64,000 nt of DNA, taken from positions 62,001 to 126,000 of the forward strand of contig JADHYV010000025.1 of assembly GCA_027604705.1 (NCBI GenBank), written 5' to 3'. Under the pieces are notes generated by a model, which worked only from the letters and a program-made list of their open reading frames with translations, did no database searches and was not told the origin of the DNA. Made by a program: the position numbers and the translations under genes. Position 1 is the stretch's first letter. Every line of letters begins with the position of its first letter. Source of the DNA: Allomyces arbusculus. Its lineage: Eukaryota > Blastocladiomycota > Blastocladiomycetes > Blastocladiales > Blastocladiaceae. Shown piece by piece: positions 10,981-46,254 of this stretch.

Positions 10981-11068
10981 ACATTAGACGCCTGCCATAC
11001 TTCAAGCACAAAAATTGGGCATGTAGGGAAAGGACACTTACACGGCACCGCTGATGCAGTATGGGCGG

Positions 11069-24196: not shown

Positions 24197-24267
24197 GCGC
24201 TGTTAGGGAAGCGGTATCATGGAACCCTCCCTTGATATCGACCCGAGTTCGATTCTCGGACGGTGCT
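24197..24267 (+). tRNA. tRNA-Gly (CCC)-like sequence, imperfect anticodon stem
   Basis: The 71 bases can be folded as a tRNA. The acceptor stem GCGCTGT pairs fully with ACGGTGC (with G-U pairs), and the T arm CCGAG-TTCGATT-CTCGG is perfect and matches the internal B box. The D arm contains AGCGGTATCATG as in many tRNA-Gly. The anticodon loop position aligns with CCC of tRNA-Gly(CCC). However the anticodon stem has two mismatches and the D stem one, and no T-run terminator follows directly. It could be a diverged or dead copy. Confidence 0.5.
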
Positions 24268-25250
24268 TAATCACAGAAAACCTGTGAAGCGGTCCCTAAA
24301 TGTGGGCCAGTTGCTGCCTTTTGTTGAAAATCGCCGCCCTCGCAACAATGCCAAATTCGAAAGAAATGATTTTGAACCGCTTGAGTCTGTATTACAATCT
24401 TGCCTTGGCCCGAGTGGTGTGGGTGGCAGGTTACAACAGGCCTATCCGTTATTTTGAATTGCAAGATTTGAGACAGCATGTCTAATGACCTCTGTGAATC
24501 GTTCTTTTTGGTCTGCACGGCTCTGCAACTGTAAAAACAGACACCCCACAATCAACAGCTTGAATGAGCACGACAATACGTCAGCTAATTATCGCCTTGG
24601 TTGCGCTCCTGTTACCATGTAAAGGCAGCGCCAAAGCCGTCCTTTTCTGATTTGCATCCTCTCAATGCCAATTGGCGAAGATCAGGTATAGCTTCTGTTC
24701 TTCATAGATTGACATCTATGAGGTGGTCCGATTGCTGGATCCCCTCTCTTGTCATATCGATTATTGCAGCAAGGAGGACCAGCTGGGTGCAATGCCTCTG
24801 CTTCGTGGGTGTCCTCTGCACTGCAGTACCGCCCAGTGACCAGCCAAGTGCATCTGCTTTTCCTGGATTCATGAAGACTCTTTTGCTTCTTTTCGTGATG
24901 CGATTCGAGGTTGTTCCGCACGCTTAAATTTCTTGTTCGGATTTCTGCGCGCGTTTGGGGCGCCTCAGCCAAGTAGGTATTCGGATCTTGATTTCCTACT
25001 GACTTGCTGTTTGCACTTTGAGCTGAGCCTTTCAAATCGACAGGTTGGTGAATGGTGGCTCGCATGTCGGGAGGGACGCGACGGCCGCTTTCTGTCGACG
25101 ACGGGCTTGCTGCAGAGAAGGAAGACGGTGTGGGTGCAGTCCGACGCAGTTGCTCTTCAGAGGAAAAATATTCCAGACTGTAATCGCGTCAACAGCATGA
25201 CATCAAATCCACTGTCCACGTAAAAACCTTGACCTCTTCCACCCCTGTCG
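24268..25250. other. Gene-poor stretch between tRNA-like sequence and partner gene 1
   Basis: About 1 kb of AT-richer sequence. Short frames occur on both strands; none has splice structure or motifs. It includes the 3' flank of the unrecognised gene that ends at 25251. Together with 23930-24196 it forms a gene-free spacer after transaldolase. Confidence 0.4.
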
Positions 25251-27434
25251 CTAACTCCTCGCGCGGTCGCAGTACCCCACGCACGGCTGCACCACCACCA
25301 CTCTCTGCCCGTCCACTCCCACACGCACCACCATCGGACCCACCGCGACGCCAACACGCCCACACTCTCGCCGTGCGTCCGCGTGCGCCAAACACACCAT
25401 CTCCGCCGCTTCCCCAGCACGCGGCACCGCCAGCATGCACCCGACCATCCGCGCCGTCACCACGAGCCGGAACCACGTGTACAAGTTGCACAAGAACAGC
25501 ACTTGCCAGTTCGGCGACGTTGGGATCCGGTGGAGCGGGCCGAGAAACGCGCGAATGTCGCGCTGATGGTCGGCGAGCAGGACCTGGACTCGGTCCGAGA
25601 TGCGGTTCGTGATCGTCGTGGGCAGGACCTCGGCGCGGAGGAGCGCGAGCCGGTGGTCGACTTTCGCGAGTTGGGCGTGCAGGTCGGTGCTTGGGCGCGA
25701 GAGGAGACGGTGCAAGGTGGCGAGGAGGCGGGTGAGGGTGGCGGAGGTCAAGTGTACGCACTGCGAGTGGAAGGAGGAGTAGGTGGGGATGTGTTGCGGC
25801 GGGAGGTTGAGCGCGATGGGGGCGGCAGTGAGGGCGTAGAGGTTGGCGGCGAGAATAGGGATTTCGGCAGCGCCTTGAGCTGGAATCGAATTGATTTGGT
25901 GAGCGCAATGGGCTCGGATGTGAGAGAGGTCTGGGTGCTGTCGAAACATACCGATCCACGCGTTAGACACGCATTCCGACTGGGTCAACACGGATGCCGT
26001 GAATGTTGCCGAGAGGGGTCTCGACGCTGAAAGAGACGTGGTGGAAGTACGCGAGGAGCTCGCGGCCGACTGGCCAGGTTCATGCGCGGGTTCCACGGCC
26101 GGAGCAAAAGACGGCGTGGGTAGGCAACAGTTTGACGAGGGAGCGTAATCGAGGGCAACGGGTGTGGTTACTCGTTCATTGGGCTCAATGTGCGGCACTT
26201 CATGATCGACGCCCTCAGCCGTCACCAGTGCCGCCGAGCACGCGAGCGGAGAGGGTACGGTCACAACCACGACCTCGGCGCGGTGCAGCACCGTCTCGTC
26301 GACACCAAATCGAAACGGGATGCCTGGAAATGTGGACAAGACGACGACGCGCACACGCTGTGTCAAGTCGCTCTCATCGACATGCCAATCGAGCTCGTGC
26401 GGCGGATCAGCCATGGTCATCGGCGAGAAAAGCGAACTGGGCGGCGCAAACGTGAACGTCCAATCCAGATCGAGCATTTTCGTCGCAAAAAAGCACTCCA
26501 CGCTTGGCAGCACAACGCGGCGGATCAGGTCCATGTAGTCGCCCCACCCGACATGCAGCTGGAAATCCTTGGCCAGAACGTCGAGCATGGCCAGCGTCAC
26601 AGCCTTCACAACTGACACGAGTGCTGCGGTGCGGTTGCTGTGCTTTGCTTCCGGGCCAACAATGAGGTGCCGGGTCGGGTCGCCCGACACAATGGCGCGC
26701 CCGCGAATGCGCGGGTCGTGGTCGTAGCGCTCCATGGTGTCGCGCAGAGCGTGTACAGCGTGGTCGAGCCAAACAGCGACAGAGTCGGCCTCGAGGTGAC
26801 CACCAACGAGCGCAGCGTGTTGTCGGTCCCAATACGCGTTGAGCACGTCGCAGGCCGCGCGCATCACGGTCGAGAGCAGGACGGCACGCGCGTCGCTGAT
26901 GCGCCACGCGCCGAGCGTATCGGCCACGACGGCAGCGCCGTCACCATGGCCAGCGAGCGCAGTTTGGAGCAACGGTTCCACGAGAGCTTTGGTCGCAGCT
27001 ACGAAACGCTTGCGCTTGCCGCGATTCTTGACGTGGTCGAGAATCTTGACGATAATCGACTTGACGGCCTCGGACGCGTCCGTCAGCGCGCCGTCAATCG
27101 CCGCGGCGTCAGCGCGGTTCGAGCGTGGATCACATGAGCGCGGTGACGGCGACACTCTGGTCGTGACTTGATCGGCGGCTGTCGCGGCTGGCGCACGGCT
27201 CAAATTGGTACTCGCGTCGCATGTTGCAAGCCCGTTGCGACCAGTTGGCTTTGAATCGGCGTCTTGGATCGAGTCGTGTTCGTCTAGCACAGTTGCTGCA
27301 GCACGTCCTCGGTCGGTCCCAATTTGCTCGCGGCGATGCAAGCCAGCGGCGGCCGCATGATTGGCTGGGATCTCGTCGGCGTATGGATTTTTTTCGTCCC
27401 ACCCGAGAATGGCCGACAAGAAGGCGAGGATCAT
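25251..27434 (-). CDS. Unrecognised HSPA12-partner family protein 1
   Basis: Member of a three-copy family in this window with no domain I recognise. Exons on the minus strand 27434-25952 and 25873-25251 (78-base intron, phase 1, no stop inside) give 701 residues. It has no signal peptide or membrane helix. Conserved block 1 (about residues 110-410) includes GALTDASEAVKSIIV, LDHAVHALRDTMERYDHDP, DLIRRVVLPSVECF and the very conserved FPGIPFRFGV.ETVLHRAEV. A variable Pro/Ala/Ser linker follows, then block 2 from the intron (NAWI-GAAE) with AANLYALTAAPIALNLPP, DLHAQLAKVDHRLALLRAEV, NLYTWFRLVVTARMVG and the end VQPCVGYCDRA. The gene is head to head with an HSPA12-like gene that is broken, yet this copy is intact. 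Function unknown; the constant pairing suggests a partner or regulator of the ATPase. Confidence 0.75.
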   Translation of the reverse strand: MILAFLSAILGWDEKNPYADEIPANHAAAAGLHRREQIGTDRGRAAATVLDEHDSIQDADSKPTGRNGLATCDASTNLSRAPAATAADQVTTRVSPSPRSCDPRSNRADAAAIDGALTDASEAVKSIIVKILDHVKNRGKRKRFVAATKALVEPLLQTALAGHGDGAAVVADTLGAWRISDARAVLLSTVMRAACDVLNAYWDRQHAALVGGHLEADSVAVWLDHAVHALRDTMERYDHDPRIRGRAIVSGDPTRHLIVGPEAKHSNRTAALVSVVKAVTLAMLDVLAKDFQLHVGWGDYMDLIRRVVLPSVECFFATKMLDLDWTFTFAPPSSLFSPMTMADPPHELDWHVDESDLTQRVRVVVLSTFPGIPFRFGVDETVLHRAEVVVVTVPSPLACSAALVTAEGVDHEVPHIEPNERVTTPVALDYAPSSNCCLPTPSFAPAVEPAHEPGQSAASSSRTSTTSLSASRPLSATFTASVLTQSECVSNAWIGMFRQHPDLSHIRAHCAHQINSIPAQGAAEIPILAANLYALTAAPIALNLPPQHIPTYSSFHSQCVHLTSATLTRLLATLHRLLSRPSTDLHAQLAKVDHRLALLRAEVLPTTITNRISDRVQVLLADHQRDIRAFLGPLHRIPTSPNWQVLFLCNLYTWFRLVVTARMVGCMLAVPRAGEAAEMVCLAHADARRECGRVGVAVGPMVVRVGVDGQRVVVVQPCVGYCDRARS

Positions 27435-27900
27435 GGAGGGCTGGCGCGGATGCAGTGCGTCAGATTCGGTCGTTGCAGGCGCCGTCCCGCTGATGAAGCT
27501 AAGCTGGCACGTTGTCGATTATTTGTCCGCGTTGATGGTCGCTCCATGGCCTCGTTTCTCGTCATGCCTGCTGTGGTGCACGAGCGGCTCAGGCTGGCGC
27601 GGCAGTACACTTTTGGCCGTCATGTCTTGCGCGGCCAACTGCGACATGCGCCGCGGCCGACTCCACAGCGCGCGCACCTCCGGCGCGCCCTCGCTGATGC
27701 GCTACAAGGTGGGCAAGACTTGGACGTGCTGTACCGTGCTGCTGACCTTGCTTGAAAAATCGTCGTGCACGGCCCCGAAACGACCACGACGACGGGATCG
27801 GCCGTGATGACCACGTCGCTTGCTTCCCCTTGTACTTCGACACGAGGAACGCACGCAAAACCTCTGCCAAGCACCGCCAACCCGACCAACCAGTGCCAAG
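27435..27900. promoter_or_regulatory. Head-to-head promoter region of pair A
   Basis: The 466 bases separate the start codons of partner gene 1 and the broken HSPA12-like copy A. Corresponding spacers in pairs B and C are 533 and 422 bases. A CAACC/ACCAACC-rich stretch precedes the ATPase start. Confidence 0.4.
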
Positions 27901-29800
27901 ATGGGCCAATATCAGTTGCAAGTGCCAGCGCCTGACGACCTGCTCGCAGCCGTGCACCCAATCAAGTGGCAGGTCGCAGTCGATTTTGGCACCAGCTACA
28001 GCTGGTTTGCCATTGCGATCAAGGATTTTGTCAGCACGCTCAACCAAGATGCTGCCGCAACCAATCTGTTGTCAGTTCTGCACCTGCAGCTTGCCAACTA
28101 CATCAAGTTCAACGTGTCATGGCCCACTGGCCATGCCCCATATCTCAAAACGTGCAAGGCGTTGCTCTATGACGTCAAGGGTGAGGTCGTTGAGGGGGGC
28201 AACGAGGCGCGGGGGCAATGCCTGAGCATGGACCTGGATGCACAGGTTGAGTACATTTACATTGACTACTTAAGGCGGCTACTCAGTGTCAAGCTTGTGC
28301 ACAAGAACATGGCCATGGAGCGGATCAAGAAGCTTGGCAAGGCTCTGGTCGATGTGATTGCTGACTACTTGTGTGCACTCGTCGAGTTTCTTGGCAAGTT
28401 TATCAAGCACAGTGATATGACAATGTGCGTCAACGTCTTGGATTCAATCTTCACGTTTTCGAGGACTGACAGCGACGCTCCTGCTTCTCCAACATCAGCA
28501 AGTTTATCACGTCTGCTGCCTGAAAATTCCGGCCATGTGGAGTGATGTGGCCAAGCAGAAATTGCATTGCACCATGTTCAAGGCTGACCTAACCCTGTCA
28601 CTGACCTCTGAGTGCATCATCTTATGCTTGGAGCTGATGGCGGGCCTTCTTACTGAGGCCATTTTGTCCAATGCGTGCACCAAAATCCAGCACAATGATC
28701 CAATCCTGATGGTGGACATGGGTATGCTTGTGCTCTCTCTTGCTGTTGGCACACTGTGGTTGGATGGACAAGGATTTTCACGCTCTTCCTGATGCTTAGG
28801 TGGCGGCACTGTTGACTTGACAGCAATGCACATGGGCAGCAACGAGTTTGATGAGCTTGTGCTGGGTCTTGGCGCATTGTGTGGATTGACCATGCTCGAC
28901 AATGAGTTCCTTGCCATGTTTCAGCACGCCATCGGGCCCATGATCTATGACCAGGTCCTCACTGAGCACCCCAAGGTTAAATTGATAGTTTTTGTGTGAT
29001 TGGGAGACGTACAAGACCACGTTCCACAGCAAGAAGCGGTTCCATGGCTGCATCACGATCCTGTACCTCTTGGCACAGCTGCTTGATGCGCACCAGTTGT
29101 ACTCGTTGTTGTTGTCATTGCCTGAGGTGGAAGTGGAGCTTGACGACAACGAGCTGTGCATGATGACAACACTCATAGAGTTGCTCCACAAGCTGATAGT
29201 CGACCAGTTTGTTGGGCTGGTGACCTAAATGCTTGGCCAGTGCAGGGCCAAGGGCATCACGATTGCGCACGTGCTGTGCATTGGTGGGTTCTTGCAGTCA
29301 AATTCCTTATTTGACGTGCTGCGTGACCAGCTGCCCATCGACTCTAGCAAGATTGTCGCATTGGCAAACGCGCCAGCTGCAGTGTTGCTTGGTGCGCCCA
29401 TTTTCAGTATGGATCATGGTTTTGCATCGTGTTGCTGTCAACTCAAACCGACTTGACCATGCGGTGCTTTCGGTAAATGATGTACCATGCCAACCTGAAC
29501 TGATTCTCAAGCAGGCTGCGCAACTCACGTCTGGCATTGTGACCAACTTGTGCTGTTCGCCATCACTCCATGGTCTGCGCGAGAAACACAATGACTGCGT
29601 CTTCAAGGACGAGGATAGGGCCCTGCTCCTCATGCACGGCTTTGATGTGTCCATCCGCAAGGGTGATGTGCTCCTCCTCAGCAATATCATCCGTATATGC
29701 TGTTGATTGCCTGGTGAAGGGGTTGACTTTTCACGTGTTCATGTTGCACCTCAAGGACCCCCGATTTCACGGATACGGTTGGGTGTCACATCAAGTGAGC
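27901..29800 (+). pseudogene. HSPA12-like Hsp70-family ATPase, copy A, decayed
   Basis: Recognisable over its whole length against the two intact copies. It begins MGQYQLQVPAPDDLL with VDFGTSYSWFAIA (phosphate-1), continues with IPAMWSDVAKQKLH, ILMVDMG and GGGTVDLTAMHMG (phosphate-2), LTMLDNEFLAMF, AHVLCIGGFLQS (adenosine motif) and CQPELILKQ, and fades after DFTDTVGC near 29795. Breaks: the frame is lost at the first splice junction, a one-base change of frame near 28990 follows KVKL, and a TAA near 29226 interrupts the GLVT-MLGQ segment; other substitutions hit conserved positions (W for G in SYSGF). Compared with copies B and C it has lost most CpG dinucleotides in favour of TG and CA. Its divergent neighbour, partner gene 1, is intact. 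Confidence 0.82.
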
Positions 29801-30814
29801 TCTTGTGAGCAAACGTCGGGGTGGAAAAGCATGACTAAAGCAAGGCAGATATCGCCAGAGGACAGGCCCAGCGAATGTCACGTTCTTTGAAGTAAATGAC
29901 GTCTTTGTATCGTCCTGGGCCCTTGCGCGCTGGCTTCGCTTTTTCACACCCATTATACATCGCTGATGTGGCAGTGCCAAGGCACAGATTTCGCGTTACC
30001 CTGAATCATTTTGAGCAACTCCCGATTGGCCATGACGAAGCCGTGCTGGCAACTTGGCATGAGGTGACGCAAGGAGATTTGAACAAAATTTTGGCTCTCA
30101 CAGGCAGGTTGCGAAAATGATACGTCTTCAGATCCGTACCCTGCAATGCATCCAATATTCCATCAGCCATGCCCTGGAAACAACAGCAATCCATGCCTAT
30201 CATGTATACTTGATTCGAGGTGACAGTACCTTGGACACTTTGCCAAGCAAAACAGTTCCAAACACGGCAAGCATCCAATCATGATACGAATTCACTCGCC
30301 CCATTTTCTGGCTAACGGCACAAACTGTCATGCCAGAGAGTCGCTGTTAGACGATCACGGCCACCAGGTCGCAGCTCACATTATTTTTGACTGGAGCACC
30401 ATGCATATCGAGGGCGCCAAATTGCCCGCAGCGCGCCTGTATCGATGAAGAGCGGGTTTTATTGCGTCAACACTGCACCGATACAGGCAACACGATCACG
30501 TCTCTGTTGCATCTGAAGGGAGTGTGAGCACCACATGTCAGAGAAGAAGAACATAAGCGCGCTGCTCTCTGAGTGCAAGTGTAGCCAAAATGAAGAGAAC
30601 TGACGGCAAGATTTAACCCATGGCAACTGAAGTTGGCATCGAACTCCAAAACCAATCATGACAATACATTTGATGAAAGGGCGAGCACATACAACAGGTC
30701 AACATGAAGCCTTCCGACTTTCCTCCCAGCCAAATATCCTCTTCCATTTTGTCAAACGGCCCATGCTCGAACACCGGTCCCAAATGACCGTCGCTCACAC
30801 CCGGACCACGCGCC
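29801..30814. other. Convergent spacer between HSPA12-like copies A and B
   Basis: About 1 kb of CpG-poor, AT-richer sequence between the 3' ends of the broken copy A and intact copy B. I see no gene, repeat or RNA in it. Confidence 0.45.
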
Positions 30815-32870
30815 TTAGTCGTAGAAATCGACCGTCGTCCCGATCTTGGCGTCTGTGCGCTTGTTCTTGACCTCCAGCACGAGCCCCGTGTGCGCCACGC
30901 GCACCGTCGCGACCAGCGGGTCCCTCTTCGAAAAATGCGTGCACACCGTCACTTTGATCGTGACCGTGCCCACCTTGTCGCACCCAACCGTGTCTGTATA
31001 CACCGGGTCCTCGAGGTGGGACACGTAGATGTTGAACCAGACCTCAGTCTGCGTGCAGTAGGCAGGCACGTACGACTTGGTAATCACCTGGCCCGGCACC
31101 AGCGCGTCGCCCTTGCGAATGACGACATCGAACGCGTTATCCACGCGCGTGATCCCGTCGTCGCACATGACGAGCCGGTCTCGCAACCGCTCGCGTGGAC
31201 CGTGCATCGACGGCATGTAGGGCGTGCGCATTTCAATGCCGTAGGTGAGCCGCGCGACCTGCGTGCGGATCAGTTCGGGGCGGCAGGCTACATGTATGAT
31301 GGAAGCGGCAAGCTTAGCTCGAGAACACCCCAATATGATCTGGACCGCAAAAAGACGGACCGAAAATGGGCGCGCCGAGCAAATTGGCCGCGGGACCATG
31401 CGCCGACGCGACAATCTTGAGCGGGTTAATCGGGAGCCGCTCGCGCAGCGCGCTGAGCAAGTACTTGGACTGCGAGAACCCGCCGACGCAGAGCACGTGC
31501 GCCACCGAGATCCCCTTGGCCCGCAACCGGTCGAGCATGGTCGTCACGAGCCCGACAATCTCGGCCACGATGGGCTCGTAGAGCGTTTCCATGATCGCGG
31601 TCGTCAAGCACAGCTCGTCGTCGTCGAGTTCCACGTCCACATCCGACTCGAGATCGTCCAAGTCGAGGTACTTTTCCATGGTGCGCGGGATTGGCACGCG
31701 CCCAAACCACCGCTTCTCGCCCATGAACGTCGTCTTGCACGTTTCCCAGTCGCGCAGGATCTGCAGCTTGACCTTGGGGTGCTCGGCCACAACTTGGTCG
31801 TAGACCTCAGGCCCAACAGCACGCCGGAACATGCTGAGAAACTGGTCGTCAAGCATGGTCGCGCCACACGACGCGCCAGTCCCTGGCACGAGTTCGTCAA
31901 ACCCGTCGTTGCCCATGCACATGGCCGTCAGGTCCACGGTGCCGCCGCCTAGTAATTGCGGGAAGGTGAGACATGGTATTTCACCGCGATGTGAACCAAT
32001 CAAGTTGAAAAAGAGTCGAGTATACCCATGTCGATCATCAGGATCGGGTCGTCGCCCTTGACCTTGGTGCGCGCGTCCGACGAGATCGCTTCGGAGAGCA
32101 GTCCGGCCATGGGCTCCGAGCAAAAGATGATGCGCTCCGAGGTCAGCGATGGGATCAAGTCAGCCTTAAACATGGCGCGATACATTTTCAGCTTGGCCGC
32201 GTCACTCCACATGGCCGGAATCGTCAGGCACCAGCGCACGTGAAACGGGTTCAGCTCGCTGGGAAAACGGTGGAAAAGGTGGGGAAGCAGGAGGGCCATC
32301 AGCCCATGAGGAATCATGCTTTCGATTAAATGAGGAGAACACGTACGTCGTCGGGTCGCCGTGCTGAATATACTTGCCGAGAAATGCGACGAGCGCCCGC
32401 AAATAGTCGGCGATCACGTCGACCAAGTCCTTGCCGAGGGCCGTGAGCCGCTCCATGGCCTTGTCGCGGTGATTGAGCTTGGCGTCGAGCAGCAGCTTGA
32501 ACCGGTCAATGTAAATATGTTCGGCCTGGTCGTCTGGTTCCATTGCCATAAACTGCTCCCACGCCTCGTTGCCCCACGCGACAATCGTTCCGCTCGCGTC
32601 GTAGAGCAGGGCCGTGCGCGTCTTGGCGTAGGGCATGCGGCCACCAGGCCACGACGAGTTGTACTTGATGTAGTGCGTCAGGTGGATGCGCGGGACTGAG
32701 GCGAGATTGACGGCTTTGGCGCTATCGACGACGGCGCCGGCAAAGTCCTTGACGGCGATGGCAAAGCCCGAGTAGCTGGTGCCGAAATCGAGCGCAATCT
32801 GCCACTTGATCGGGTATACGGCGGCGAGCAGGTCGTCGGGCGCGGGAGCTTGCGACTGGTGCTGGCCCAT
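30815..32870 (-). CDS. HSPA12-like Hsp70-family ATPase, copy B
   Basis: Member of the Hsp70/actin ATPase superfamily, HSPA12 branch. Exons on the minus strand 32870-32347, 32258-32026, 31948-31361 and 31287-30815 give 605 residues. Motifs in order: ALDFGTSYSGFAIA (phosphate-1, about residue 27), NPFHVRWCLTIPAMWSD, FCSEPMAGLLSEA, MIDMGGGTVDLTAM (phosphate-2, about 250), ASCGATMLDDQFL, and AHVLCVGGFSQSKYL (adenosine motif, about 400). The C-terminal part from CRPELIRTQ to VDFYD is short and beta-rich in appearance, unlike the full Hsp70 substrate-binding domain with lid. No signal peptide. Exon lengths match copy C exactly except for one codon in exon 3. The gene is head to head with partner gene 2. 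HSPA12 proteins have unclear substrates; chaperone activity is inference. Confidence 0.9.
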
Positions 32871-33403
32871 CTTGGATCTTGGTGGACTTGGTCGTGGGGG
32901 CTGCCGGTGCTGGTGCGTCGTCGAGCGCGACGCGTCTTGGTGAAGGCCAAGGAGGAGGGATGGTGGTGTCGGGGAGGCCGCGCTAGGTGTGCGCAACGCG
33001 TCTCGCACGCAATCAGCAATCCAATCGCGGTCGCCAGGCGCGACACGGCGCGTCCGGACCTTGTCCACCGTGCAGCGCAGCAGCAGGGCCGCGCTGAGAT
33101 GTGCGCGCGCGCACGCGATGGAGCCGGCGGCGGCGGCCATCTCGGTCCTGGTCCAATCCACTGGCAGCCGTCTTAGACATGAAGGCCGGGCGCACGCCGG
33201 GCGCCGAGTGCGTGCGGCCCGCGCGCCGTGCCGAAGAGCACGATACTGCCGCAGCCGGACACGATCGCGACACGGCCATCACGCTGACGGCGCCGCCTTG
33301 GACACGATCCACGACGACCGAGTCTTCAGCGTGGCCTCTGCTGCTGCTGCTGCTGCTGCTACTGTGACCTCGGCCCAGTGCTCCTCTTGGTTCCGTGCCG
33401 TCC
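32871..33403. promoter_or_regulatory. Head-to-head promoter region of pair B
   Basis: The 533 bases separate the starts of HSPA12-like copy B and partner gene 2. A CTG/TGC trinucleotide run lies at about 33339-33363. Both promoters are expected here. Confidence 0.4.
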
Positions 33404-35703
33404 ATGGACCGGATCGTCGACTTCTTCTCGGCAGTGTTAGGAATGCGCGCGCGCGACCGGCAAATTAACGATCATGACAGCGTCCACCAGCTCGATGCGG
33501 CCACGAGAGGCCGTCCCACCGGCGCGACGCGCAGCACCGAAAACGACGTGATCCAGGGCGCCGATCCGAATGCGACTGGTCGCATTGTCCAAGAAGCTTC
33601 CGCGTCGTCGCCGTCATGGGCGACCATCGTGCGCGGCGCGCCCGCGAACCCGACCGACACTTCGCTGCCAGCATCAACGACTACACCAGCGAGGAGCACA
33701 TGGAACTCGCGCTCTGACCGCGCGTCTGCCGACGCCGAGACGATTGACCGCGCACTTACGAACGCGAGCAACGCGCTCAAGTCGCTCATTGTCCAGGTGC
33801 TCGGGGAAAAGAGTAACCACAATGCGCGCAAGGCGCTCGTCGCTCGCACCAAGAAGCTCATTCGTGCAGATCTGGAATCGATGCTCGGATCGAACCGCGA
33901 CGGCGAGCACGCTCCCAGCATCAATCTGGTCCTCGTCGCCTGGCGCATGGAGCACGCGCGCGCGGTCATTGGCTCGACGGTGTTGCTTTCTGCCTGCACC
34001 GCACTGCGCAAGCATTGGGACCGCCAGCAGACTGCGCTTTCCGGTGGTGGTCGGCGGGGCAGCTCGGGCGAATCTGACGCGACGCTTTGGTATTGGCTCG
34101 ATCTCGCCATTCGGGCTCTGCGCGACGTGGCCGAACGGTATGATCACGATCCGGCCGTGCGGCAGCATGCCGCCAAAAGCAAAGACCCAATCCGTGTTTT
34201 CTTTGCTGTTCTCGCTCAAGATAAAAAGCCCAACATGGGCCTCGACGCTCTTATGTCGGTCGTTGGCGACGTGCTCATGACCATGCTCGGCGAGCTGAAG
34301 AACATATTCAATCTGACCTTGTTGCAGCAAGATTTTCCGACTTTGATCCGCTGCGTCGCGCTGCCGCTCGTCGAGTGCTTCCTATTGACCAAGACGCTCG
34401 ACTCGACTTGGGATTTCCAATTTATGCCGCTCGGAATGTCGTTCTCGTCTCGCTCCATGGTCGATCCGCCGCTGGAAGTCGAGTGGCATGTGGGTGAGCG
34501 CGACGTACCTGCTCGCGGTCGTGGTCTCGTCGAGACAAAGGTGGTCTTGCTCACGACGTTTCCGGGCATCCCATTCCGTTTCGGCGTCGCTGAGACGGTC
34601 CTGCACCGCGCCGAGGTGCTTGTCGTGCCCGTGTCCGCGCCTGCTCCAACTCCACCTCCGAGCGCGGCGGTGCCGGCACTGGCCGACCCAGTGCAGAATG
34701 AGAAACTGCGCGCTGCTCTCGTGGACCCAATTCTCGAACCTTTTGCCCCTGCTCACGCTCGGATCCCCACTCCTCCCGCGGCGCCCACTCTTGCTCCTGC
34801 CATGGAACCCGCGATGGAACACACGATGGAACCCGCGATGGAACCCGCATATTCAGTGCAGAGCCCTACGCTTGCGCCCATTACGTTTGTCTCGCCGGTT
34901 TTGCTGCCGAGACCAACGTCGGCGCCGCCCACGATGATGACCACGTCGGTCCAGACAGACGCGGCCGAGACCCCTTCAGTATCGTGGGCCAGTTCGTTGC
35001 GATTTGTCTACTTCTCTTGTTGAGGTGCATCGCCTCCCGAGTTCTAATCGCTCACCATGTCTTCTTTTTAAACGTAGCTATCTGCGCTGGCGACCTGCAT
35101 ACGTTCACCGCCAACCTGTACGAGCTAATGGCGACGCCGGTGATTCTCAACCAGCCGCCGGGTTACTACGACCTAAGTACACACTGGCCGCGCGTGCACA
35201 TGACAGCCGGGACGATCGCCCGCTTCATCGACTTGTTCCACCGCATTGCCTCGAATCCGAACACCGATTTGCATGACGAGCTTGCCAAGGCCGACAACCG
35301 GCTCGCCCTGCTGCGCGCTGAAATGGTGGACGCGACCTTGGCCAACCGCGTCTCCCACCGGCTCCAAGCGTTCATTGACGATCACAAACCCAACATTAAT
35401 TGGGCGCTCGGCGACCTCAAGTACACGCCGAGCTGCCCTCGCTGGGAGGTGCCGTTTGTGCACAACCTCTACCAGTGGTTCCGGCTCGTTCTCGTCGCGC
35501 GCATGGCCGGGCACATGCTGGTCGTGCCGCGCAGGGGTGAGCCGCATAATGGGCAGATCGCGTGTCTCGCACACAACATACGCGACTGTGGATACAAGGT
35601 CGGCGTCGCGCTGGGGCCGAGCCTAGTGTCTATCACGGACGGCCTGCCGGTCTGCGACGTGCCGCTGTTCCCTGGGTATTGTGACCGCGCGGTCCCTAAT
35701 TGA
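33404..35703 (+). CDS. Unrecognised HSPA12-partner family protein 2
   Basis: Exons 33404-34991 and 35078-35703 (86-base intron, donor GTTCGT, phase 1) give 737 residues. The ATG at 33404 (MDRIVDFFSAVLG) aligns with the short amphipathic N terminus of partner 1. Conserved blocks: DRALTNASNALKSLIVQVL, IRALRDVAERYDHDP, LIRCVALPLVECFLLTK, TTFPGIPFRFGVAETVL; after the linker and intron, DLHTFTANLYELMATP, LHDELAKADNRLALLRAEM, NLYQWFRLVLVARMAGHM and FPGYCDRAVPN. The linker holds a MEPA tandem repeat at 34801-34848. The intron is at the same place and phase as in the other two members (Trp-x, then split codon). No catalytic motif can be named; the family may be limited to related fungi. Confidence 0.78.
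34801..34848 (+). repeat. 12-base coding tandem repeat (Met-Glu-Pro-Ala)
   Basis: Four imperfect ATGGAACCCGCG units encode MEPA MEHT MEPA MEPA in the Pro-rich linker of partner protein 2. The other two family members lack it, so it is a recent expansion in a non-conserved linker. Confidence 0.75.
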
Positions 35704-35713
35704 GCGCGCGCAC

Positions 35714-35765
35714 GGGATGGAGGAGAGTGGGATGGAGGAGAGTGGGATGGAGGAGAGTGGGATGG
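35714..35765. repeat. 15-base tandem repeat, about 3.5 copies
   Basis: Unit GGGATGGAGGAGAGT, three exact copies plus a partial fourth, starting ten bases after the stop codon of partner gene 2. It lies in the 3' flank and has no counterpart after the other two partner genes. Confidence 0.85.
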
Positions 35766-36046
35766 TGCTTGTTGATTGAGGCCGTCGGAGGTTTGGTTTT
35801 CGATTTCGGAGGGCAGTTTAAGATTCATTCGACCCAATGTTTGTACTTGCGCGCGTTGCTCTTGTCTGTCCGGCTGCCCATTCTATCAGTGTGAATCGAA
35901 GCACGTATTTTTTCTAGATCATGGATTTCAAGGAACGCTCTTTACGCACTCTTTTACAAAACCGGCACTCAACAAATGAAGGGCGCAACTGTCGCATCCG
36001 TGTGTTGATCGGCTGATACTTAACTGTCACCAGTACCGATTGCGCT

Positions 36047-37230
36047 TCACAGCGCCACGTTCCGACCGCTCCCTCCACGGCTCATACTCATCCTCGCGGA
36101 CCCACGATCCAGCCCGTACATCACCCTGATATGCTCAATGACCGACTTGGCCGTCTTGTACCTCTTCATCGACGGGCAGTTGCCGCGGCCCTGAAATTGA
36201 GCACAAACAGGCGGACATGCTTGTTGAACACCTGACACGTGTCGAGCTCGATCTCGCTCTCGGTCTCGGCCGCCCACTCCTCGGGGCGTCTTCAAGAAGA
36301 GCGGGTCATGCCACGCCAACTTCATGGCAGCCAGCAATGCGCTCAACTTGCACCACTTCCAACAAGCCACCGCTCTCAGGAAACTTGTGCAGGCGGCGCA
36401 GTCCGACGAACTGGCGCTTGGCCTTGCCGGCATAGACTTCAGCAGCGGGAACGCCAAGTTGCTTCCACGCCTTTTCGACCTCGATACGGTCGGGTACAGC
36501 GACGGGCACGTTGGTGGCCCACTGCGCCATCTGCTTCTCGTCCTGCTTGAACACGGCCTACGTGGTCGGTCGGTTTGATAATCTATTGATGGTACGCGTT
36601 CAGCTCCAGTATGCGACCACGTCCGCCGGGCTTGAGCAGCTTTAGCACATATACCTCGATTCGCACTCGTCCCTCTTGTCCGAGACTTCGAGATATTGGC
36701 CGACGGTTCAAGAGCCACACAGGTTCATAGTGGCCGAGTGCGCGAGTTGGACACGGTCAACCGTGCAGCTGTAGCTCGAACTTGCCGTCGCGGATTGTTG
36801 TCGTTGGGTGGTGAAAGTCGGTCGCCCAACGAAAGAACGGATTCGTGTAAACGACGGTGTGTTGTGCGCGTCCTTCAACTGTTCAAAGAGTGAGGCCAGA
36901 AGCTCCACACTTGCTGTTGGGCAAGTGTCGACCCATCGGGTTAATTCTGGTTGAGCTTGCCTATTCCACTTCGCCTCATCGCGTAACGGTGGAACGCGCT
37001 TTCGTTCCGCTGTGCGAAGGGACGATGTTCATCTGCAATTGCGGAATGTGGATCTGCACTTCCAACCCATTGTTGAAGACCAAGCGCTTGGACTTGAAAA
37101 GCTCAATGCGTGCCAGAATGAAAGCATCGATTTTACCAATATATTCTGCGTAGGCCGGGTTCCCTACTCGATGTATCTCGTACAGATGCTGCGTAAGCAA
37201 CCGGGTGGCGAGCCAGAGAGGATCGCGTGT
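36047..37230 (-). pseudogene. Unrecognised, probably degenerate gene between pairs B and C
   Basis: Several minus-strand blocks look coding. One at 37200-36976 includes LYEIHRVGNPAYAEYIG, FILARIELFKSKRLVF and VQIHIPQLQMNIVP. One at 36560-36340, after a good acceptor (CCACGTAG), includes FKQDEKQMAQWATNVPVAVP, EVEKAWKQLGVPAAEV and FVGLRRLHKFPESGG. A third block reads PEEWAAETESEIELDTCQVF and LFVLNF, and the end reads EDEYEPWRERNVAL before a TGA at about 36054. The frames change between blocks and some changes lack plausible introns (a 36-base one would be needed), so I think the gene is damaged. I do not recognise the family. The 350 bases between partner gene 2 and this gene hold only the tandem repeat. 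Confidence 0.35.
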
Positions 37231-37366
37231 GTCTCAAAACAAACTGGCAGTCAGTTTGCTGGACGCGCTGATTTAAACTCACCAAACCAGGACCATTGCT
37301 CAGCGAGACTTTGCCACGACAAAGCTCGTTCTCCCGGTGTCAACCAAACCGATGTGGCACACCCTC

Positions 37367-39643
37367 CTAGTGCTCCAGAACCGCGCGGTCACAGAACCCC
37401 ACACACGGCGGCACATTTGCAACCCGCAGCCTATCCGCTGCGCACACCAGATTCGGGAACAGCGCGGTCCCGACCTTCAGCCCACATTCCCACGCTTCAT
37501 TGTGCACCAAGCACTTGATCTGGCCCAGAAACTCGTCGCCCGGCCGTGGCATGACCAGAACGTACCCCGCCACCCGCGCCGTCAGCACGAGCTGGAACCA
37601 CTGGTTGTGCACAAACGGCACGGTCCACCACGTTTCGGCCGGCGGGACTGCCGGAAAATCGAGCGTCCACAGAATATCATGCTCGTGGTCGGCCAGGATG
37701 GCACGGACGTGAGCCGAGACGCGGCCAGCGGTCGTGGCTTGCGCGAGATCGGCGCGCAATTGCGCAGCACGACGCTTGGCCATGGCAAGCTCGTGGTGCA
37801 AGTCGGTGTGTGGGCCCGTGAGAGTGCGGTCGAAGAGAGATAGGAAACGGTTGATTGTGCCAGAGACCATGCGGATCCGGGATGCGTGCAGGCTGTTGAC
37901 GCTGATTTCGCCGCGGGGCAGGTTGAGCAGGATGGGTTCGGTCACAAGCCTGTAGAGGTCAGAGACGAGCGCCGACATGTCGGCCGCGCATGTGACTAGG
38001 ATCGAGAACAGTTGTGGGTATGTGAGCAGAATGGGCGTTGTATGCAGAATGTGAGGGAGAGAGAACCACGGACCAATCCACGAATCCGGATGCGGTCCGA
38101 CCGCGTCCGTCTGGGTCGACGCAGTCGCCATGCCGCACGGCGCCGAAGGAGGACACTGCACGGAAACAGGTGGCATGGGCGCGAGCCCTGATTGTACATC
38201 CAGCGGGCCAGTTTGAAGCGCAGGCTTCGGGGCAGGAGCAAGGGAAGGTGCGGGTCGGGCGGGGGTTCGAGCGCGAGCACCAACGGGAGCAGGGGGTTCG
38301 AGCGAAGGAGAAATGTGCACATGTTGCGTCACGGCGCCATTTCCAAGCTCGGCCGAGACCGGCCCCATCTGCACAGCATGAGCAGGCACTGGCACGATCA
38401 GCACCTCGGCACGGTGCAGCACCGTATCAGCGACGCCAAAACGAACCGGAATGCCCGGGAACGGATTGATAACGACGACTTTGGTTTCGGAGACGCCATG
38501 CCCGCAAGTCGGCGGAGATCGCTCGTCCACGCGCAGCTCCACTTCCAGCGGCGGATCGACCATTGTTGCCGAAGAAAAAGGCGTCCCTGGCAGCACAAAC
38601 TCAATATCCCAGTTTGGATCGAGAGCCTTGGTCAAAAGAAAGCACTCGACGAGTGGTAGAGCGACACGGCGGATCAGGCCCATGAAGTCATCCCACGAGA
38701 CGGAAAGCTGGAACGTCTTGGAGAGCACATTGGCCATGTGCGTCGCCACGGCCTCCACCGTTGACACGAGCGCCTCGACATCACGGTTGCGCGTCTCGTC
38801 CCGCGCGATAATCGAGAAGAGCACACGGAACGGATCCTCGGAATCGACCGCCTTCTTGTGCACAGTCAAGTCCTGGTCGTAACGATCGGCCACGTCGCGA
38901 AGTGCCTGCACGGCAGAATCGAGCCAGAGCCGCCGCGCCGTGTCGGATTCGGCAGAGCTGCCAGAAAACACGGTCAGCTGGCGGTCCCAATGCTTGCACA
39001 GCGTATGGCACCCAACGCGGATTACTTTTGCAGCCACGGCCGCACGGGCGTGTTCCATGCGCCATACAACGAGATCCACGTCGACGCGCTTCTCGCCATG
39101 GTATGACGCGAACGCAGTTTCAAGGTCAGCACGGACGTATTCCTTTGCGCAGGCAACGAGTGACCTACGCGCGTCGCAGTTCCAATCCTGCGTGAGCACC
39201 TGGACGATGAGGGCCTTGAGCTCGTTGCTCGCGTTCGTTAGCGCGCGGTCAATCTCTTCGGCGTCGGCGGACGCGCGGGCAAAGTGTGGATTCCATGCGG
39301 AGGTCGTTGGCACTGTTGTTGTGGCCCTCGTCGAGTCACTTGCTGGTGTACTGGTCGCGGCACGAGCTGCCGCCGGCGATGCTGATGCGGCACGCGCCGC
39401 GAGGATGTTGCGACCAGCTGCAAAAGTATCAGCGCCGTGGAGCGATTCGGTTTTGGTGCCCGTGATGGCGGAATGGGCAGTGCGCGAGTTCGGCGCGGCC
39501 GTGGTTGCGTTGAGCGTGCCCATGGTGCTGCTGTCGTGGCTGTCGTGTTGGTCGTGGCCCGTTCCTGCTTTCTGCACTTGCTGGTCGTGCACGGCGGTCT
39601 CAAGCACGGTCGAGAGGGCGACGTCGAGCCAGTTCATGTTCAT
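37367..39643 (-). CDS. Unrecognised HSPA12-partner family protein 3
   Basis: Exons on the minus strand 39643-38074 and 37995-37367 (78-base intron, phase 1) give 732 residues. The frame is open through the intron, so splicing is inferred from the two relatives: all three break after a Trp-x pair (DSWI here) and resume just before a conserved helix (VTCAADMSALVSDLYRL). Conserved segments: DRALTNASNELKALIVQVL, AVQALRDVADRYDQD, GLIRRVALPLVECFLLTK, FPGIPVRFGVADTVLHRAEV, LHHELAMAKRRAAQLRADL, WFQLVLTARVAGYVLVMPR and VGFCDRAVLEH. The GTG at 39667 was not used; MNMNWLDVALSTVLE fits the N termini of the other two. It is head to head with HSPA12-like copy C. No known domain. Confidence 0.78.
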   Translation of the reverse strand: MNMNWLDVALSTVLETAVHDQQVQKAGTGHDQHDSHDSSTMGTLNATTAAPNSRTAHSAITGTKTESLHGADTFAAGRNILAARAASASPAAARAATSTPASDSTRATTTVPTTSAWNPHFARASADAEEIDRALTNASNELKALIVQVLTQDWNCDARRSLVACAKEYVRADLETAFASYHGEKRVDVDLVVWRMEHARAAVAAKVIRVGCHTLCKHWDRQLTVFSGSSAESDTARRLWLDSAVQALRDVADRYDQDLTVHKKAVDSEDPFRVLFSIIARDETRNRDVEALVSTVEAVATHMANVLSKTFQLSVSWDDFMGLIRRVALPLVECFLLTKALDPNWDIEFVLPGTPFSSATMVDPPLEVELRVDERSPPTCGHGVSETKVVVINPFPGIPVRFGVADTVLHRAEVLIVPVPAHAVQMGPVSAELGNGAVTQHVHISPSLEPPAPVGARARTPARPAPSLAPAPKPALQTGPLDVQSGLAPMPPVSVQCPPSAPCGMATASTQTDAVGPHPDSWIGPWFSLPHILHTTPILLTYPQLFSILVTCAADMSALVSDLYRLVTEPILLNLPRGEISVNSLHASRIRMVSGTINRFLSLFDRTLTGPHTDLHHELAMAKRRAAQLRADLAQATTAGRVSAHVRAILADHEHDILWTLDFPAVPPAETWWTVPFVHNQWFQLVLTARVAGYVLVMPRPGDEFLGQIKCLVHNEAWECGLKVGTALFPNLVCAADRLRVANVPPCVGFCDRAVLEH

Positions 39644-40065
39644 GGCCGGGGCTGGGCCACGGTTCACGGCGCATAAAGCGGCTCAGGGTCGACTCTGAGC
39701 AAGCCGGAGAAAGCGCCGTTGCCAAAACGGCGTGTGGCCGACGACAGCATGGGCCGTGCGCCGCGGGGCCGCGCGTCATGCCATGCCATGTCTGAGCTGA
39801 GCGGGCCGCCGCCGCCTGCCGTGTCGTGTCGCTGCGCCGCTCAGTCACGGCCAGGTCCACTGCTCGCGCAACCATGGCCGGTGTCCCTTGTGCCTTCGAC
39901 CGATGCGTCACTGGGTGGAGAAGCTGCCGACGACGCTCCAAATCGTCGTCGACGGGAGAAACGACCTCGACGACCGCGCGCTCGCTCTCCCTCCATCTCC
40001 CCACGAAGAGCGCCCCCGACGAGCAACGACCTCCACCACAACCATCACCACCACCGAGATCCAAG
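39644..40065. promoter_or_regulatory. Head-to-head promoter region of pair C
   Basis: The 422 bases separate the starts of partner gene 3 and HSPA12-like copy C. A CACCACCACAACCATCACC-type leader precedes the ATPase start, similar in style to the leaders of copies A and B. Both promoters are expected. Confidence 0.4.
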
Positions 40066-42102
40066 ATGGGCCAGCAACAGTCGCAAGTTCCCGTGCCCGA
40101 CGACCTGCTCGCGCCCGTGCACCCGCTCAAGTGGCAGATCGCGGTTGATTTCGGAACGAGTTTCTCGGGCTTCGCCATCGCGACTCACGATTTTGTCAGC
40201 GCGCTCAACAACACACCCGGCGTGATCGACTTGGCCGCGGTCCCGCGCTTGCATCTGACGCACTACATTAAGTATAACTCGTCGTGGCCCGCCGGCCGCG
40301 TCCCGTACCCCAAGACGCGCACGGCGCTGCTCTACGACGCGAGCGGCAAGGTCGCCGCGTGGGGCAACGAGGCGTGGGAGCAGTATCTCGGCATGGACCC
40401 CACCCACCAAGCGCAGTACATCTACATTGACCGGTTCAAGCTGCTACTCGACGCCAAGCTCGCGCACCAGGACCCGGCCATGGATCGGCTCAAGGCGCTC
40501 GGCAAAGACGCGGTCGACGTGATCGCCGACTATTTGCGCGCGCTTGTCGGGTTTCTTGGCAAGTTTATCAAGCACGCGGACTCGGCCGCGTACGTCGCTT
40601 TTCTCTCTTTCTCCATGCTCAATAGATTGGTCAGAAGCTGATTCACTTTCTTTTCCATCTTGTCCGCCAGCGAGCTCAACCCCTATCACGTGCGCTGGTG
40701 CCTGACGATCCCGGCCATGTGGAGCGACGCTGCCAAGCAAAAGATGCATCGCGTCATGTTCAAGGCCGGCTTGCTCCCGTCGCTCAACTTGGAGCGCGTC
40801 GTGTTCTGCTCGGAGCCCATGGCGGGCTTGCTGTCAGAAGCGCTTTCGTCCGACTCGCGCACCAGCGTTCAGCGGGACGATCCGATCCTCATGGTCGATA
40901 TGGGTACGCTTGATCACTTCTCCCTCGCTGGCCCACATTGTTGGGAGAATGCGCTTGTTGATGCGTGACTCAATAACGTAGGCGGCGGTACGGTCGATTT
41001 GACGGCCATGCGCATGGGCGGCAACGGGTTCGACGAGCTCGTGCCGGGTCTCGGCGCGTCGTGTGGGTCGACCATGCTCGACGACCAGTTTCTCAGCATG
41101 TTCCGTCGCGCCGTCGGCCCTACCATCTACGACCAAGTCCTGGCTGAGCACCCGAAGCTCAAGCTGCAGATTCTGCGCGACTGGGAGGCTTGCAAGACCT
41201 CGTTCATGGGCGAGAAGCGGTACTACGGGCGCGTGCCGATTCCATATCGCATGGCCTCGCCGCATGACGCCGTCGATATCCTGTCGCACGAGATGGAGGT
41301 CGACGAGGGCGAAGTGTGCATGACAACGGCGCTCATGGAGTCGCTCTACAAGCCAATTGTCGACCAGATTGTCGGGCTCGTGACAACGATGCTCGACCGG
41401 CTAAAGGCCAAGGGGATCGCGGTCGCGCACGTTCTGTGCGTCGGCGGGTTCTCGCAGTCCAAATATTTGATCAGCGCGCTGCGCGACCGGCTGCCGATTG
41501 GTCCAGCCAAGGTCGTTGCGTCGATGCATGGGCCCGCGGCCATTTTGCTGGGCGCGCCCATTTTTGGTACGAAAGTCAGATTGGCCGCGATGTGGGGGAA
41601 ACCTGACTGATATCCTTTCACTCCTTCAGGGTGCCGCCCCGAGCTGATCCACAAGCAAGTCGCGCGGCTCACGTACGGGATCGATACGTCATTGCCCTTC
41701 CAGCCGTCGCTGCACGGTCCGCGTAACCGGCTCGCTGACCGGCTCTACATGAGCGACGACGGCATCACGCGCATCAAGAACTCGTTCGACGTCGTGATTC
41801 ATAAGGGCGACGCCCTGCTGCCCGGCCAGGTGATCACCAAGTCGTACGTGCCCGTTGACTGCACGCAGTCGCACGTGACGTTCAAGGTGTTCGTTTCGCA
41901 CCTCGAAGACCCCGTCTACACGGACACGGTTGGGTGCAACGAGGTCGGGAAAGTCACAATCAAGGTCACGCCCTGCACGCATTTCTCGGCCAAGGACCCG
42001 CTGCGAGCGACGGTGCGCGTGCAGCATACGGGGCTCGTGCTTGAGGTCGCAAATGAGCGCACGCGCGCAGTGGTCGATATGACGGTCGATTTCTACGACT
42101 AG
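40066..42102 (+). CDS. HSPA12-like Hsp70-family ATPase, copy C
   Basis: Exons 40066-40589, 40671-40903, 40982-41566 and 41630-42102 (introns 81, 78 and 63 bases) give 604 residues. It is close to copy B throughout. Motifs: AVDFGTSFSGFAIA, HYIKYNSSWPAGRVPY, NPYHVRWCLTIPAMWSD, MVDMGGGTVDLTAMRMG, CGSTMLDDQFLSMF, AHVLCVGGFSQSKYL, GPAAILLGAPIFG and the C-terminal FVSHLEDPVYTDTVGC. All nucleotide-binding elements of the family are present, so it should be able to bind ATP. The C terminus lacks the alpha-helical lid of classical Hsp70. It is divergent from partner gene 3. The N-terminal 25 residues, MGQQQSQVPVPDDLL and following, are conserved among the copies and may be a lineage-specific tag; the glycine after Met raises the possibility of N-myristoylation, unproven. 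Confidence 0.91.
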
Positions 42103-45760: not shown

Positions 45761-46254
45761 TGAGGGCTGGAAAGCGCGTCACAAGTTCAGAGGCAGGGGT
45801 TCTATAAAGACAGAAAGAGGTAGGGAGAGGGGATGAGCTATGTCTGCAAACTTGTATGGACTGGAGAGATGGGCCAGTTGCACTTGAGCAGGTGCCCCTG
45901 CACAGGCCATGAACAAAATAGAATGTGTGGCAGAGAGCTCCATGGCCCAGTTCCTGGATTGCACATTGTGCGTTGGCGGCCGTGTGGGATCAAGAAAGCA
46001 ATGAAGTGGAATGATGCGAGCCTTGCCAACATCCATTTCTCTCCATTTCTCGCACCTGCCTGTCGAACCCAAGACGAAAGCTGTAATAGCATTCCATTGT
46101 TCACAAACAGGGGGAAAGTCTGGGTCCAACTTGCCGCCATTGGGAAGCGTTGAACGCTGAAAGCCTGAACATGACAACCACATCTCAGTCAACACCACGG
46201 CAATGAAAGGCCCACTCAACGCTGTATTCCACCAAAGACCTCCATTTCAAACAT
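45761..46254. other. Intergenic region between secreted-protein remnant and eS8 gene
   Basis: About 500 bases of CpG-poor sequence. Open frames are present on both strands, but none has supporting motifs. Confidence 0.4.

What the first reader, a model, noticed from the sequence alone, without database searches (positions are those of the whole stretch)
25251..42102. Three copies of a head-to-head gene pair: HSPA12-like ATPase plus an unrecognised partner family
Seen directly: within 17 kb the same two gene types occur three times, always transcribed away from each other with 422-533 bases between start codons (25251-27434/27901-29800, 30815-32870/33404-35703, 37367-39643/40066-42102), with the middle pair inverted. 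Known: HSPA12 proteins are Hsp70/actin-fold ATPases with unclear clients. Inference: keeping the pair together through duplication and inversion suggests the two proteins work together, perhaps as ATPase and client-recognition or regulatory subunit. I know of no described system of this form.
Basis: partly seen in the sequence, partly recalled or inferred. Interest (0 to 1): 0.88.

Follow-up and report, generated by a model that had tools for sequence, protein, structure and literature searches.

The report
Paired Hsp70-like gene and unknown partner
A stretch of a eukaryotic (probably fungal) genome carries three side-by-side pairs of an unusual Hsp70-like gene and an unidentified partner gene, one of whose Hsp70-like copies is dead, and related Hsp70-like genes in Streptomyces bacteria also sit next to a dedicated partner of unknown function.

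Summary
Three divergent pairs lie at the stated places. All three partner genes (P1, P2, P3) are intact, with one intron at the same site (703/737/732 aa). Two ATPase genes (H2, H3) are intact four-exon HSPA12-type Hsp70s. H1 is a pseudogene: frame-breaking indels, stops, and CpG decay absent from its neighbour P1. So two complete pairs exist. The partner has only chance-level matches in Pfam, NCBIfam, PADLOC, PHROGs and PDB sequences.

Another test could: H2 has full-length bacterial relatives, and these have a partner too. In 8 of 8 Streptomyces plasmid records (four near-identical at this locus), and in 11 of 12 HSPA12-carrying genomes among 295 Streptomyces genomes (the twelfth ATPase is broken), a gene of one family, mostly about 220-310 aa, follows on the same strand. 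Homology of the fungal partner to the bacterial one is unproven: 9 of 100 shuffles reach the profile score.

Best reading: HSPA12-type ATPases of this branch work with a dedicated, genetically linked accessory protein. The mechanism is inferred. Rivals: hitch-hiking on a bidirectional promoter, or a recognition module.

The parts
25251..27434 (-). P1, partner gene copy 1; exons 27434-25952 and 25879-25251, intron 25880-25951; 703 aa; intact
27435..27900 (.). 466-base intergenic region between the P1 and H1 start codons
27901..29800 (+). H1, HSPA12-type ATPase pseudogene (frame-breaking indels, stops, CpG decay); 3' limit approximate
30815..32870 (-). H2, HSPA12-type ATPase; exons 32870-32347, 32258-32026, 31948-31361, 31287-30815; 605 aa; N-terminus MGQHQSQ fits a myristoylation consensus (recalled)
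32871..33403 (.). 533-base intergenic region between the H2 and P2 start codons
33404..35703 (+). P2, partner gene copy 2; exons 33404-34991 and 35078-35703; 737 aa; intact
37021..37263 (+). faint HSPA12-like relic (one motif region); marginal
37367..39643 (-). P3, partner gene copy 3; exons 39643-38074 and 37995-37367; 732 aa; intact
39644..40065 (.). 422-base intergenic region between the P3 and H3 start codons
40066..42102 (+). H3, HSPA12-type ATPase; exons 40066-40589, 40671-40903, 40982-41566, 41630-42102; 604 aa; N-terminus MGQQQSQ
60113..60343 (-). faint partner-like relic with stops, about 18 kb from H3

Best explanation
H2 and H3 are HSPA12-type Hsp70 ATPases that work with a dedicated accessory protein, P, made from the opposite side of a short shared promoter region. 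Shown: the gene anatomy, intact ATPase motifs, purifying selection on both types, an intact partner family, and that Streptomyces relatives of this ATPase are nearly always encoded directly beside a partner gene of one family. Inferred: P (a helical N-terminal domain, a small strand-rich module, a Pro-rich linker and a second, mostly helical C-terminal part) binds the ATPase and acts as client adaptor or cycle regulator. The divergent arrangement would keep the two in balance, and the ATPase may be held at a membrane by N-myristoylation. The locus evolves by birth and death, with pair 1 partly dead.
For: Three paralogous divergent pairs. H2/H3: dN/dS 0.28, 75% identity; P2/P3: dN/dS 0.42, 49% (NG86, dS of P saturated). 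Shared intron site in all three P. H2 to bacterial HSPA12-like: and hhalign E 5.7e-44. Bacterial linkage: 8 of 8 Streptomyces plasmid records with the ATPase have the partner adjacent on the same strand (coordinates; six neighbourhoods opened; four of the eight are near-identical here); 7 of 7 genome loci with a long ATPase match have the partner next to it (the eighth locus L015, a 21-residue match, dropped; in L013 both genes look frame-shifted); in 295 Streptomyces genomes 12 carry the ATPase at E 1e-60 or less and 11 of these have the partner directly downstream; all 9 genomes with a long partner match (of 23 with any match at E 1e-3 or less; the other 14 are short matches to profile positions of about 10-85, not examined and dropped) have the ATPase beside it. 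These samples overlap and must not be added up. No co-chaperone domain in P by Pfam at E 1 or less.
Against: P1 has stayed intact beside a dead H1, so P1 does not need its own neighbour (it may use H2 or H3). The three pairs may descend from one arrangement. Homology of P to the bacterial partner is not shown: hhalign local P-values 0.05-0.2, global mode 0.48 and 0.98, HMM-to-sequence search negative both ways, whole-profile score reached by 9 of 100 shuffles (the 0 of 120 was for a segment picked after inspection, and the other picked segment gave 27 of 120). Gene order differs: divergent here, co-directional in Streptomyces. One plasmid (NZ_CP054927.1) also has an 85-residue partner fragment with no ATPase within 1.5 kb. 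The bacterial pair is known to me from Streptomyces only. The isolated relics here show no mate. The three intergenic regions share no word of 9 bases or more (16 shared 7-mers against 7.3 expected from simple shuffles, of which the highest also reached 16). No expression or binding data.
Confidence: 0.42

Rival explanations
1. Hitch-hiking: two functionally unrelated genes happen to share a bidirectional promoter region, and local segmental duplication and inversion copied both. The pairing says nothing about joint function.
For: Only one ancestral arrangement and two or three duplication events are needed; H1 is dead while P1 is intact; lone H and P relics; no shared promoter word of 9 bases or more; short divergent intergenic regions are common in compact fungal genomes (recalled).
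Against: The homologous ATPase has a linked partner in 11 of 12 carrier Streptomyces genomes and 8 of 8 plasmid records, so linkage with a partner recurs. Pairing has survived until P2 and P3 diverged to 49% identity.
Confidence: 0.38
2. A self/non-self or toxin-antidote-like module: P is a fast-changing recognition or effector protein and H its chaperone-type controller; birth-and-death evolution gives the array and the dead copy.
For: Array with intact, dead and relic copies; P diverges faster than H (49% against 75% identity for the same pair); the N-terminal and linker parts of P are among the most variable.
Against: dN/dS of P is below 0.55 in all three comparisons, so no sign of overall diversifying selection; no PADLOC match for P1, P3 or the first exon of P2; no toxin or recognition domain by Pfam. 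If H were a needed antidote, an intact P1 beside a dead H1 would be awkward unless H2 or H3 covers it.
Confidence: 0.12
3. P and H are cargo or parts of a decayed mobile element that spread locally.
For: Inverted middle copy; CpG-depleted tracts as in silenced repeats; eight of the bacterial relatives found are on plasmids.
Against: Similarity seen between copies is confined to the coding regions; no flanking repeats joined to the pairs were seen; no transposase or integrase found, though only 20 selected frames and proteins were scanned with Pfam.
Confidence: 0.05

Closest known systems
HSPA12 (Hsp70-12) family of atypical Hsp70s (PMC2266713 and PMC12692333, passages seen)
   Same: Hsp70-type nucleotide motifs (DFGTS, EPMA, GGGT); weak relation to canonical Hsp70 (Pfam HSP70 17.4 bits, below the 20.6 cut-off, residues 185-411 only); C-terminal part shared with the bacterial HSPA12-like proteins.
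   Different: The long insertion reported for HSPA12A/B in place of HSPA1A residues 168-192 is absent: E223 of EPMA and D251 before GGGT are 28 positions apart in H2. The passages seen mention no linked partner gene for vertebrate HSPA12.
Streptomyces HSPA12-like 'Hsp70 family protein' with the adjacent hypothetical protein (e.g. NZ_CP054927.1)
   Same: Homologous ATPase with a closely linked partner gene of one family; partner with predicted coiled-coil-like N-terminal half and a conserved C-terminal end, WDF-type motif in many members (by eye; no structure predicted).
   Different: Same-strand operon instead of head-to-head; partner mostly about 220-310 aa instead of 703-737; homology of the partners not shown. 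A small gene with weak HTH-type matches is divergent upstream in the 5 loci aligned.
Classical Hsp70 co-chaperones (J-domain proteins, BAG, GrpE, Hsp110)
   Same: The role proposed here: assist or regulate an Hsp70-type ATPase.
   Different: P1, P3 and both pieces of P2 (unspliced translations) gave no Pfam hit at E 1 or less apart from one non-significant match to Pfg27, E 0.02.

Membership tests
HSPA12 (Hsp70-12) | Hsp70/actin-fold nucleotide motifs DxGT, EPxA, GGxT | tested here: met
   Present in H2 and H3 as DFGTS, EPMAG, GGGT; motif list from PMC12692333 (passages seen)
HSPA12 (Hsp70-12) | Full-length relation to HSPA12-type proteins, far from canonical Hsp70 | tested here: met
   H2 matches eight Streptomyces HSPA12-like proteins over 89-96% (E to 4e-27) while only weakly matching Pfam HSP70 and PDB DnaK/BiP (best E 9.5e-4). 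That the Streptomyces proteins are themselves HSPA12-type is by recalled motifs
HSPA12 (Hsp70-12) | Direct alignment with vertebrate HSPA12A/B | not tested
   No vertebrate HSPA12 sequence turned up in the collections used; resemblance by recalled motifs only
HSPA12 (Hsp70-12) | Long insertion in place of HSPA1A residues 168-192 (reported for human HSPA12A/B) | tested here: not met
   E223 to D251 in H2 is 28 positions; insertion described in PMC2266713 (passages seen). Probably a vertebrate trait, not family-defining (inference)
Known Hsp70 co-chaperones (J-domain, BAG, GrpE, Hsp110) | Signature domain in P | tested here: not met
   Pfam scan of P1, P3 and both pieces of P2 at E 1 or less: no co-chaperone domain
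Bacterial HSPA12-partner family (A8) | Sequence homology of P to the bacterial partner | tested here: inconclusive
   hhalign local P-values 0.05-0.2, global 0.48 and 0.98; HMM search negative; 9 of 100 shuffles reach the whole-profile score
Bacterial HSPA12-partner family (A8) | Gene directly beside an HSPA12-type ATPase | tested here: met
   P2-H2 and P3-H3 adjacent, though divergent rather than co-directional
Anti-phage defence systems | Match to a PADLOC model | tested here: not met
   P1, P3 and the first exon of P2: none at E 1 or less; two bacterial ATPases: none; of two bacterial partners one had a marginal ZorA hit, E 0.046

The most novel reading that the evidence does not exclude
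HSPA12-type Hsp70s, from Streptomyces to fungi, belong to a two-component machine: the ATPase plus a dedicated, genetically linked partner with a helical domain and a terminal strand module. The fungal P family is a greatly diverged, enlarged member of the same partner family, moved from an operon to a divergent pair. This would be a co-chaperone class not previously described.
Probability: 0.17. Interest if true: 0.82.

Novelty: new variant of a known kind. Interest (0 to 1): 0.55.

Why it matters
The clients and cofactors of HSPA12 proteins are poorly understood (recalled). If the ATPase needs a linked partner, the simple Streptomyces operon offers a bacterial system in which HSPA12 biochemistry (binding, ATPase control, client choice) can be tested directly, and the fungal pairs give a eukaryotic counterpart. 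None of the titles and abstract starts listed pointed to either pairing; one search returned no paper, and the 10 papers listed of 5,254 do not mention HSPA12, so that search is uninformative.

Tried and rejected
No whole genome is held for the window, so the host could not be searched; it is eukaryotic by its U2 snRNA, short introns and SWI/SNF ATPase. That it is a zoosporic fungus such as a blastocladiomycete is a guess from recalled G+C and gene style.

Searches that found no relative of P: viral contigs with P3 and with the P N-domain alignment, GTDB genome contigs with the same alignment, plasmids with P3, phages with P3, PDB sequences with the P profile, NCBIfam with P1 and P3, PHROGs (two sub-threshold hits for P3). 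The contig scans start from short peptide patterns, so their silence is weak evidence. Searches of viral contigs for H and for the bacterial partner found no relative. H in phages gave three short partial matches only.

Structure: the full P3 model is useless (mean pLDDT 30.6). The P2 N-domain model is fair in its helices (mean 62.8, pTM 0.65, helical blocks about 52-88), but Foldseek gives no match at E 1e-3 or less in PDB or BFVD.

Rejected: P as an internal tandem duplication (blastp and hhalign of the two parts negative); P related to H; a long shared promoter motif. The apparent H fragment beside the 60-kb P relic (E 0.018) was rejected as inconsistent in orientation. Homology of P and the bacterial partner looked tempting by eye (WDF motif followed by a strand) but is not significant over the whole profile, so it is not claimed.

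In the Actinomycetota sample the ATPase profile at E 1e-50 or less found 1 of 396 genomes, the query's own; the partner profile found 6 of 396, only that one full-length. Anabaena has a partial ATPase match with an unclassified hypothetical protein downstream; it was not counted.
Full report
WHAT IS THERE. The window is eukaryotic: it holds a U2 snRNA gene, a tRNA-Gly gene, a SWI/SNF-type ATPase and genes with short GT-AG introns. Three divergent gene pairs lie where the finding says, with 466, 533 and 422 bases between start codons. I call the partner P and the ATPase H: P1/H1, H2/P2 (inverted), P3/H3.

PARTNER GENES. P1, P2 and P3 each have one phase-1 intron (72, 86, 78 nt) at the same aligned position, and after splicing encode 703, 737 and 732 aa without internal stops. 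Identities are 44% (P1/P2), 39% (P1/P3) and 49% (P2/P3); NG86 dN/dS, with saturated dS, is 0.47, 0.54 and 0.42. P has only chance-level matches in Pfam (one, Pfg27, E 0.02, below its cut-off), NCBIfam (P1 and P3, none), PADLOC (none), PHROGs (two for P3, E about 0.1) and PDB sequences (none). A model of the N-terminal domain of P2 is a helical bundle of fair quality followed by two low-confidence strands without a fold match at E 1e-3 or less. By Kyte-Doolittle P1 has one moderately hydrophobic stretch (six 19-residue windows above 1.6), P2 one window, P3 none, so no shared transmembrane segment stands out.

ATPASE GENES. H2 and H3 are four-exon genes of 605 and 604 aa, 75% identical, dN/dS 0.28. 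They keep the Hsp70-type nucleotide motifs, but H2 scores under the Pfam HSP70 cut-off. Their N-termini, MGQHQSQ and MGQQQSQ, fit a myristoylation consensus (recalled, untested); H1 reads MGQYQLQ and has lost the serine.

H1 IS DEAD. Compared with H3 it has six frame-breaking indels within exon sequence and in-frame stops. CpG observed/expected is 0.60, against 1.28 and 1.32 in H2 and H3 and 1.29 in P1. Of 377 substitutions specific to H1, 194 are C>T or G>A and 115 of those are at CpG; for P1 the figure is 106 of 402. This looks like methylation-driven or repeat-induced decay (inference) of H1 and the tract behind it. So the finding has two complete pairs and one half pair. P1 has stayed open beside the dead gene, which speaks against strict need for its own neighbour.

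HISTORY OF THE PAIRS. Four-fold-site divergence in well-conserved blocks is 0.33 for P2/P3 (23 of 70 sites) and 0.34 for H2/H3 (82 of 243), as expected if both genes of a pair were copied together. Over whole genes the figures are 0.50 (112 of 224) and 0.34 (84 of 247) with non-overlapping intervals, and the two gene types differ in third-position G+C (0.71-0.74 against 0.85), so the dating is open. Two faint relics suggest further lost copies.

THE BACTERIAL PARALLEL. tblastn of H2 against plasmids found nine records: eight from Streptomyces, matched over 89-96% of H2, and one partial match in Anabaena. In the six Streptomyces neighbourhoods opened the ATPase gene is followed within 7-28 bases, on the same strand, by a hypothetical protein; four were aligned as one family, and all six match its profile (L004 and L006 carry the identical protein). 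A search with that protein alone returned eight records, the same eight Streptomyces plasmids, each time beside the ATPase by coordinates. Four of the eight are near-identical at this locus. One record (NZ_CP054927.1) holds in addition an 85-residue fragment of the partner, 95% identical, with no ATPase match within 1.5 kb. A scan of GTDB genome contigs gave eight loci; seven hold a long ATPase match and all seven have the partner next to it (in L013 both genes look frame-shifted); the eighth (L015) is a 21-residue match and was dropped. Among 295 Streptomyces genomes, the partner profile matched 23 at E 1e-3 or less, of which 9 are long matches and 14 are short weak ones; all 9 lie beside the ATPase. 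The ATPase profile found 12 of 295 genomes at E 1e-60 or less; 9 are those just named, two more have a diverged partner found with a profile built without them (E 6.6e-14 and 4.2e-13), and in the last (G465) the ATPase is fragmented beside a reading frame that looks like a transposase by eye. A small gene with weak HTH-type matches is divergent upstream in the five loci aligned. These samples overlap and are not summed. In 396 genomes of the phylum only the query genome had the ATPase at E 1e-50 or less, so the pairing is shown for Streptomyces only.

IS P THE SAME PARTNER? Not shown. hhalign gives local P-values of 0.05-0.2 for P against the bacterial partner and 0.48 and 0.98 in global mode; the same measure for H against the bacterial ATPase is 5.7e-44, and partner-against-ATPase controls give 0.66-0.70. 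The best local match joins a WDF motif and the residues after it. In my own profile-profile score this segment beat 120 of 120 shuffles when picked out by eye, while the second picked segment was reached by 27 of 120; over the whole P profile 9 of 100 shuffles reach the score, and HMM searches in both directions fail. With three P sequences the test is weak.

HOW IT LIKELY WORKS. The best-supported view is an HSPA12-type ATPase with a dedicated accessory protein encoded alongside. Shown: linkage here and, independently, linkage of the homologous ATPase to a partner in Streptomyces. Inferred: binding, adaptor or regulatory function, membrane attachment, and balanced expression from a shared promoter region. 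The strongest rival is hitch-hiking of unrelated genes on a bidirectional promoter; only kin genomes or binding tests can separate the two.

KNOWN OR NEW. HSPA12 is known; PMC2266713 (passages seen) reports homologs only in vertebrates among the genomes it examined. PMC12692333 and PMC8778642 were seen in passages. Searches for HSPA12 with fungi, Streptomyces and partner terms listed no title or abstract start on such a pairing; HSPA12 with Rhizophagus returned nothing; one search was uninformative. Listings are not readings, and the library lacks most subscription journals.

Noticed in passing
27901-30000: CpG-depleted tract beginning at the H1 gene while P1 and the intergenic region keep normal CpG; suggests targeted methylation or repeat-induced mutation of one gene of a pair.
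   Followed up: partly
45001-46000 and 9001-15000: Further CpG-depleted tracts (CpG observed/expected 0.41, and 0.86-1.05) in a window that mostly runs at about 1.1-1.4.
   Followed up: no
24656-24852 (+) and 24197-24267 (+): U2 spliceosomal RNA gene (62.8 bits, full-length) close to a tRNA-Gly(CCC) gene.
   Followed up: no
37021-37263 (+): Marginal HSPA12-like relic between P2 and P3.
   Followed up: partly
60113-60343 (-): Partner-like relic with stops, about 18 kb from the array.
   Followed up: partly
18092-18576 and 18996-19496: Direct repeat, 79% identical, about 500 bases.
   Followed up: no
51371-54784 (+): SWI/SNF-type ATPase with HSA, SnAC and bromodomain in one open frame.
   Followed up: no
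61283-62206 (+): P-loop GTPase-like frame, below Pfam cut-offs for MMR_HSR1 and AIG1.
   Followed up: no
63183-63782 (-): Short-chain dehydrogenase (adh_short, 56.5 bits).
   Followed up: no
L001, L002, L003, L004, L007 (upstream of the ATPase): Small conserved gene divergent from the Streptomyces HSPA12-like operon, with weak HTH-type matches; possible regulator or third component.
   Followed up: partly
L057 (G465): Fragmented HSPA12-like gene beside a reading frame that looks like a transposase by eye.
   Followed up: partly
L061 (NZ_CP054927.1, 424538-424792): Second, truncated copy of the bacterial partner, 95% identical over 85 residues, without an ATPase match nearby.
   Followed up: partly
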